The notes under the pieces are model-generated. The model was not told where the DNA came from, ran no database searches, and saw only the letters and a list, made by a program, of their open reading frames with translations. Positions 10,465 to 30,987 of a DNA stretch of 64,000 bases are shown piece after piece. The stretch spans positions 2,046,001 to 2,110,000 of the forward strand of contig NZ_AP019823.1 of the NCBI RefSeq assembly GCF_007990525.1. The letters run 5' to 3'. This DNA comes from Leptotrichia hofstadii (GTDB taxonomy: Bacteria; Fusobacteriota; Fusobacteriia; Fusobacteriales; Leptotrichiaceae). Position 1 is the stretch's first letter. Each line of letters opens with the position of its first letter. Both the position numbers and the translations under genes were made by a program.

Positions 10465-10654
10465 ATTTTTTCCTCCTCGTTTTGATATTTTTAATCTTCT
10501 TCAATATGCCCTCACATACATAATATAAGGAATAAGCTCTACAGCTAAACATACCTTTACAATCTTTATTTAAATATCCATAGTGTCTTTGTATCTCATT
10601 TAATCTATATATATTTTAATAAAAATGTTTTTAGGTTTATTAATCTGTTTTTTA

Positions 10655-30644: not shown

Positions 30645-30679
30645 TAAAAAAAACCTGCCAGCTAAATTCAACTGGCAGG
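30645..30679 (-). terminator. Strong terminator of the small-peptide transcript
   Basis: On the minus strand CCTGCCAG pairs with CTGGCAGG around a ten-base loop, followed by eight T. Confidence 0.9.
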
Positions 30680-30713
30680 CAAAAGGTAGGACAATAAGAC
30701 AAGAATTCAACTG

Positions 30714-30785
30714 CTATTTTTGACTGCTAAAAATCAAAAACAATATGATTATAACTGTCAAAACAGTCAAATCCCAATTTGCCAT
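30714..30785 (-). CDS. 23-residue hydrophobic peptide, type I toxin-like
   Basis: A minus-strand frame starts with ATG at 30785 and ends with TAG at 30714. The product begins MANWDLTVLTV, continues with an unbroken hydrophobic run (IIILFLIF) and ends SSQK. It could span a membrane once. AGGGG lies about nine bases upstream. A consensus promoter lies 56 bp upstream and a strong terminator 35 bp downstream, so this is an independent transcript of about 190 bases. In the leader, TCAAGG and CCTTGA form a hairpin. The whole has the shape of Ibs- or Fst-like type I toxins, but an antisense RNA was not found. No family is recognised. Confidence 0.6.
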   Translation of the reverse strand: MANWDLTVLTVIIILFLIFSSQK

Positions 30786-30840
30786 TATTACCATCCCCTG
30801 TTCAAGAAAGTGTAATCAAGGTTGCGTTCCTTGACAGACA

Positions 30841-30869
30841 ATTATATCACAAAAAAAAGCCCTATTCAA
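30841..30869 (-). promoter_or_regulatory. Promoter of the 23-residue peptide
   Basis: On the minus strand TTGAAT (30864-30869), a 17-bp spacer and a perfect TATAAT (30841-30846). The predicted leader is about 49 bases. Confidence 0.75.
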
Positions 30870-30987
30870 TAAAGAATAAAGCCCTTTTCTCGCATTTTTA
30901 ATTTTACACTAACCTGAACAGGTTTTTTATTCAAAGTTATTATATCATTTTTTCTAAAAAAATTCAATCCCAAAATTTTCAAAAAAC

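What the first reader, a model, noticed from the sequence alone, without database searches (positions are those of the whole stretch)
30645..30869. Independent transcript for a 23-residue membrane peptide
A promoter (TTGAAT-17-TATAAT), a leader with a hairpin, a ribosome site, a 23-codon hydrophobic peptide and an eight-T terminator all fit in 225 bp. Type I toxins such as Ibs and Fst have this layout. An antisense RNA was not found by eye, although a T-tailed hairpin sits on the other strand at 30911. The palindrome CCTGAACAGG there repeats the CCTGTTC/GAACAGG around the ribosome site.
Basis: partly seen in the sequence, partly recalled or inferred. Interest (0 to 1): 0.62.

Follow-up and report, generated by a model that had tools for sequence, protein, structure and literature searches.

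The report
Same-strand RNA-controlled membrane-peptide toxin module
A tiny gene for a greasy 23-residue peptide, probably a self-poison, sits right behind a second tiny gene on the same DNA strand whose RNA is built to stick to the peptide's message and block it; many matched pairs of this kind occur across the oral bacterium Leptotrichia and on its plasmids, in a gene order that toxin-antitoxin finders are written to exclude.

Summary
The transcript unit is real, on the minus strand: promoter P2 30869-30841, 5' hairpin, ribosome site, 23-codon ORF 30785-30714, terminator 30680-30646. Directly upstream, on the SAME strand, a second promoter (30967-30939) drives a predicted ~80-nt RNA ending in a G-U-rich terminator whose 3' arm also holds P2's -35 box. 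That RNA is antisense in two blocks to the toxin leader: its 5' part to the ribosome-site region, its middle to the loop of the toxin's 5' hairpin. Cassettes are multicopy: 5 in this genome (one on a 5.4-kb contig), in 12 of 13 Leptotrichia genomes and in one other genus of the family. Across 19 sequence types every RNA pairs best with its own leader (mean -30.9 vs -14.7 kcal/mol; 0 of 100,000 permutations), so the antisense blocks co-vary. In most types the 3' UTR is predicted to mask the ribosome site. Best explanation: a new type I toxin-antitoxin family whose antitoxin is transcribed in tandem, not from the opposite strand. I found no earlier report from Fusobacteriota in the papers searched. 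Expression and toxicity are untested.

The parts
30939..30967 (-). P1, promoter of the antitoxin RNA: TTGAAT-17-TATAAT with TG before the -10
   Evidence: P1/P2 of 38 copies: 76 of 76 have a -10 of at least 5/6 matches, 75 have TGn, 65 have TTGA
30851..30932 (-). Predicted antitoxin small RNA, about 80 nt (5' end inferred from the -10, 3' end from the T run)
   Evidence: ends not measured
30904..30922 (-).
   Evidence: best with own leader in 19 of 19 types
30890..30895 (-). Antisense block B, ATGCGA, complementary to the loop of the toxin mRNA 5' hairpin
   Evidence: cognate -7.7 vs -4.9 kcal/mol over 19 types, 0 of 100,000 permutations; weak (4 bp) in the window copy itself
30851..30889 (-). 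Antitoxin terminator, stem with G-U pairs then T8; its 3' arm contains the -35 box of P2
   Evidence: 54 G-U against 1 A-C in 19 stems
30841..30869 (-). P2, promoter of the toxin mRNA: TTGAAT-17-TATAAT with TG before the -10
30815..30835 (-). 5' hairpin of the toxin mRNA, GTCAAGG-AACGCAA-CCTTGAT; loop is the target of block B
   Evidence: hairpin found in nearly all types with differing stems and loops
30797..30815 (-). Target of block A, TTACACTTTCTTGAACAGG, running into the SD
30791..30799 (-). Shine-Dalgarno region AGGGGATGG (GGAGGTGG or GGGGGTGG in nearly all other copies)
30714..30785 (-). Toxin-like peptide ORF, 23 aa, MANWDLTVLTVIIILFLIFSSQK
   Evidence: mean hydropathy 3.3 over residues 6-19
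30678..30691 (-). 3' UTR segment predicted to mask the SD in the full-length mRNA
   Evidence: SD pairs with the 3' UTR, probability 0.71 here and 0.55-0.97 in 16 of 19 types
30646..30680 (-). Toxin terminator, 12-bp stem plus T8

Best explanation
A type I toxin-antitoxin cassette with both genes in tandem on one strand. P1 makes a short RNA that stops at a terminator overlapping P2. P2 makes the toxin mRNA. The short RNA acts in trans: block B touches the loop of the toxin's 5' hairpin while block A zips onto the ribosome site, stopping translation and probably exposing the duplex to RNases. The full-length toxin mRNA is also predicted to mask its own ribosome site with its 3' UTR, so translation would need trimmed or nascent mRNA. 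When the short RNA falls (P1 silenced, cassette or plasmid lost) the peptide is made and inserts in the membrane. Shown from sequence: the layout, the promoter and terminator signals, the two co-varying antisense blocks, specificity per copy, multicopy distribution and plasmid carriage. Inferred: expression, RNA ends, repression, toxicity, the trimming step, and an addiction or stress role.
For: Own leader is the best partner of every small RNA in 19 of 19 types, 0 of 100,000 permutations; blocks A and B each hold alone; 13 of 15 types tested reach at most 2 of 500 leader shuffles; G-U pairs far outnumber A-C in the terminator stems, so the RNA is the minus strand; conserved paired promoters; conserved short hydrophobic peptide; plasmid copies; predicted SD masking by the 3' UTR; five broken toxin genes whose antitoxin is still present.
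Against: No transcript or growth data. L061 has an intact toxin gene whose antitoxin region is replaced, and L080 seems to lack the antisense block. One genome of the genus, G006, has no copy. The whole-RNA duplex energy alone was not significant. Two types (L004, L019) are weaker against shuffles (11 and 10 of 500). Block B in the window copy is only 4 bp.
Confidence: 0.83

Rival explanations
1. The small RNA does control the peptide by the same antisense pairing, but the peptide is not a toxin: it is a small membrane protein that modulates a membrane complex or serves in stress.
For: Toxicity is untested; apparent orphan toxin genes L061 and L080 persist; the SD of the window copy is weak.
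Against: Multicopy with orthogonal regulators, carriage on small plasmids, presence/absence at one site and frequent breakage of the peptide but not of the RNA fit an addictive module better than a housekeeping peptide.
Confidence: 0.12
2. P1 to the first terminator is a cis leader (attenuator) of one long toxin transcript rather than a separate trans-acting RNA; block A folds back on the ribosome site only in read-through RNA.
For: Read-through RNA is predicted to pair block A with its target in cis, probability 0.85.
Against: P2 is a full promoter conserved in every extracted copy, downstream of the P1 terminator, so most toxin mRNA should lack block A.
Confidence: 0.04
3. The complementarity is a by-product of DNA-level correction of an inverted repeat (template switching) inside a repetitive element, with no regulatory function.
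For: Such processes can homogenise nearby inverted repeats without selection, and the cassette is repetitive.
Against: G-U exceeds A-C (54 to 1 in terminators, about 23.5 to 11 in the pairing blocks), which a strand-symmetric process would not give; two separated blocks match in the right antiparallel order; promoters, SD and ORF are kept, pN/pS about 0.54.
Confidence: 0.01

Closest known systems
E. coli tisB/istR-1, shoB/ohsC, zor/orz, dinQ/agrB (type I, non-overlapping antitoxin gene)
   Same: Short hydrophobic toxin; separately transcribed small RNA next to it with limited complementarity to the toxin mRNA; duplicated loci (zor/orz).
   Different: Those antitoxins are transcribed divergently and pair far upstream in a long 5' UTR (PMC4147584). 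Here the RNA is on the same strand, upstream, with its terminator overlapping the toxin promoter, and it pairs at the ribosome site of a short leader.
Fst/RNAII (par of pAD1) and relatives Ldr, SprA1, Lpt
   Same: Plasmid and chromosomal copies; trans pairing at separated sites, one at the ribosome site (par detail from own knowledge); single-helix peptide.
   Different: Those genes converge or overlap; toxins carry APXXXG/PXXXGC (PMC8309996). This peptide has neither P nor G and matches no Pfam or NCBIfam model.
Ibs/Sib
   Same: Very short hydrophobic toxin in intergenic, multicopy loci (own knowledge).
   Different: Sib RNA is encoded opposite ibs (own knowledge); here both genes are on one strand and the peptide sequence is unrelated by eye.
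hok/sok and aapA/IsoA
   Same: Full-length toxin mRNA held inert by 5'-3' pairing that masks the SD (PMC6733600), predicted here too.
   Different: Their antitoxins are overlapping antisense RNAs; toxins unrelated; 3' trimming is not shown here.
Type III systems (ToxIN and others)
   Same: Gene order antitoxin RNA, terminator, toxin on one strand; known in Fusobacteria (PMC4147584).
   Different: Type III toxins are RNases bound as proteins by repeat RNAs. Here there is a 23-aa peptide, no repeat array, and RNA-RNA pairing.

Membership tests
Type I toxin-antitoxin (general) | Small hydrophobic toxin peptide | tested here: met
   21-24 aa, hydropathy 3.3 over residues 6-19, conserved in 39 extracted copies
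Type I toxin-antitoxin (general) | Antitoxin RNA complementary to the toxin mRNA | tested here: met
   Co-varying complementarity, own pair best in 19 of 19 types
Type I toxin-antitoxin (general) | Peptide is toxic and the RNA represses it | not testable with these tools
   Needs expression experiments
Type I toxin-antitoxin (general) | Primary toxin transcript with masked SD | tested here: met
   Predicted only: SD pairs with the 3' UTR in 16 of 19 types, locally in 3
Type I as defined by TADB 3.0 | Toxin gene and antitoxin RNA on opposite DNA strands | tested here: not met
   Both on one strand in all extracted copies; definition in PMC10767807
Fst/Ldr | APXXXG / PXXXGC motif | tested here: not met
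   No P or G in the window peptide; motif from PMC8309996
Ibs/Sib | Antitoxin encoded opposite the toxin gene | tested here: not met
   Complementary RNA is on the same strand, upstream
hok/aapA-type mRNA control | 3' processing activates the toxin mRNA | not testable with these tools
   Masking predicted; processing needs RNA data
Type III toxin-antitoxin | RNase toxin and repeat antitoxin RNA | tested here: not met
   23-aa peptide; no repeat array between P1 and its terminator

The most novel reading that the evidence does not exclude
A new type I toxin-antitoxin superfamily of Fusobacteriota with a compact one-strand design: antitoxin terminator fused to the toxin promoter, two-site recognition (hairpin loop plus ribosome site), and at least 19 naturally distinct RNA-target pairs arising by duplication and paired divergence, with read-through transcripts silenced in cis.
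Probability: 0.65. Interest if true: 0.72.

Novelty: new variant of a known kind. Interest (0 to 1): 0.62.

Why it matters
Type I systems look confined to few phyla, partly because searches start from known families: a 2025 paper lists only Proteobacteria, Firmicutes and Tenericutes, adding Cyanobacteria itself (PMC12390103). TADB 3.0 requires the antitoxin on the opposite strand (PMC10767807) and so would skip this design. If the toxin is confirmed, type I systems extend to Fusobacteriota, a tandem layout should be sought elsewhere, and the matched pairs form a natural library for asking how antisense specificity splits after gene duplication.

Tried and rejected
Antisense RNA on the plus strand at 30911: the palindrome belongs to the 5' end of the minus-strand RNA, so dropped. 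Duplex energy of the whole small RNA with the whole toxin mRNA was not significant (182 of 1000 shuffles as good), because the terminator arms and U-rich tail dominate; restricting to the antisense part and the leader, and comparing cognate with non-cognate copies, resolved it. Rfam with a relaxed threshold: only matches far below gathering scores. tblastn on phages and plasmids and a viral-contig scan: nothing; a DNA search found the plasmid copies. Weak profile hits in other genera: those inspected (L058, L063, L064, L065) lack the layout. The genome-contig scan found only L. hongkongensis, but its pattern was narrow.

Full report
WHAT IS THERE. The finding lies between a diacylglycerol kinase gene (31932-31033, minus; Pfam DAGK_cat) and a GH57 glucan-branching-enzyme gene (30435-28846, minus).

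THE MISSING PARTNER. The promoter scan shows a second near-identical minus-strand promoter, TTGAAT-17-TATAAT at 30967-30939. From it to 30851 runs a predicted ~80-nt RNA that ends in GAAAAGGGCTTTATTCTTTATTGAATAGGGCTTTTTTTT. This stem is complete only with G-U pairs, so it is a terminator of the minus-strand RNA. Its 3' arm contains TTGAAT, the -35 box of P2. The RNA's 5' part, CCTGTTCAGGTTAGTGTAA (30922-30904), is the near-complement of the toxin leader TTACACTTTCTTGAACAGG (30815-30797).

FAMILY. The peptide has five copies in this 2.6-Mb genome, one on a 5.4-kb contig (C4) with relaxase- and Rep-like ORFs (the ORF names are my reading of the sequences). Relatives occur in 12 of 13 genomes of the genus and in one other genus of the family; I saw no credible copy elsewhere among 98 genomes of the phylum. 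The genus is Leptotrichia: the GTDB scan names L. hongkongensis for loci at the same contig positions as G007, and two further unannotated copies lie on plasmids of L. trevisanii and L. wadei. The pattern terminator/-35, TGnTATAAT, GGAGGTG gives 22 hits, all in the two genera, and none for the reversed pattern.

CO-VARIATION. I extracted P1, small RNA, P2 and leader from 39 copies. They fall into 19 types. The small RNA of every type pairs best with its own leader, and every leader with its own RNA: cognate mean -30.9, non-cognate -14.7 kcal/mol, 0 of 100,000 permutations. Examples: CCATTAGCGTG/CACGCTAATGG (the other genus), CAATCTATATGCTT/AAGCATATAGATTG, CCATTCGGCGTGG/CCACGCTGAATGG, TCCATATCAAACT/AGTTTGATATGGA. 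A second, separate contact joins the middle of the RNA to the loop of the toxin 5' hairpin: TTTGCGAA/TTCGCAAA, TTTGCAGAA/TTCTGCAAA, GGTGAAA/TTTCACC, TAGCGAA/TTCGCTA, TGCGGA/TCCGCA. Tested alone, block A (-22.0 vs -9.8) and block B (-7.7 vs -4.9) each beat all 100,000 permutations. The two blocks occur in the order needed for one antiparallel duplex. The types are related by descent, so the permutation counts are descriptive; but the antisense sequences are unlike between types while promoters, SD and ORF stay alike, which is the signature of paired change.

STRAND TEST. A strand-symmetric DNA process would leave G-U and A-C mismatches equally often. Terminator stems have 54 G-U and 1 A-C; pairing blocks have about 23.5 and 11. 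This favours RNAs of the cassette strand under selection over palindrome correction.

TOXIN mRNA. In 16 of 19 types (one of them, L081, with a truncated ORF) the SD is predicted to pair with the 3' UTR (mean probability 0.55-0.97; 0.71 in the window); in the other three it is masked mostly by the 5' leader. This resembles the inert full-length mRNAs of hok and aapA (PMC6733600). The peptide shows moderate purifying selection (pN/pS about 0.54).

EVOLUTION. The dgk-GH57 site is occupied in six genomes (G000, G002, G003, G008, G009, G010), doubled in G008 by two different types side by side. It has no cassette in G004, G005, G006 and G012, where the gap between the genes is 120-127 bp in three; G004 keeps a relic of P1 without the rest. 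Broken peptide genes with the antitoxin region still present: L024 and L055 (start lost), L081 (truncated), L096 (frameshift), L016 (stop lost). L061 has a toxin gene whose antitoxin region is replaced, and L080 seems to lack the antisense block; these are the main puzzle for a strong toxin. Within this genome the five RNAs are largely orthogonal; the closest cross pair is -25.2 against -29.5 kcal/mol for that leader's own RNA.

MECHANISM AND NOVELTY. Best reading: type I toxin-antitoxin, acting in trans, with tandem genes. Read-through from P1 would fold block A onto the ribosome site in cis (probability 0.85), a possible extra safeguard. TADB 3.0 states that type I toxin and antitoxin lie on opposite strands and requires this for prediction (PMC10767807); the E. 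coli non-overlapping pairs are divergent (PMC4147584). I found no report of type I systems in Fusobacteriota in the papers searched; PMC12390103 lists only Proteobacteria, Firmicutes and Tenericutes, plus its own cyanobacterial case. Preprints and most subscription papers were not searched, so priority is not certain. Because one published definition (opposite strands) is not met while the working features are, I call it a new variant of type I rather than a member of any named family.

Noticed in passing
window 30788-30799 (-): The window copy alone reads GGGGATGG at the SD; its orthologues read GGGGGTGG or GGAGGTGG. The change weakens the SD and creates an in-frame ATG three codons upstream (possible 26-aa product).
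   Followed up: partly
L112 / L071 (G008:C1 about 1650700-1651600): Two different cassette types lie head to tail at the window's own dgk-GH57 site, a snapshot of tandem duplication or neighbouring insertion with divergence.
   Followed up: partly
L061 (G010:C12:60314) and L080 (G022:C1:19483): Intact toxin-like ORFs whose antitoxin RNA is replaced or lacks the antisense block; L061 is near a contig end.
   Followed up: partly
L109 (G004), gap upstream of the GH57 gene: Relic of promoter P1 and the first bases of the small RNA remain where the cassette is gone, a deletion scar.
   Followed up: partly
L053 (G000:C4, 5413 bp): Small plasmid-like contig with relaxase-like and Rep-like ORFs and one cassette, suggesting a plasmid-maintenance role.
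   Followed up: partly
window 10497-10562 (-): Rfam match RF03133, S4-Fusobacteriales ribosomal protein leader, 66.1 bits: the only Rfam match in the window at gathering score.
   Followed up: no
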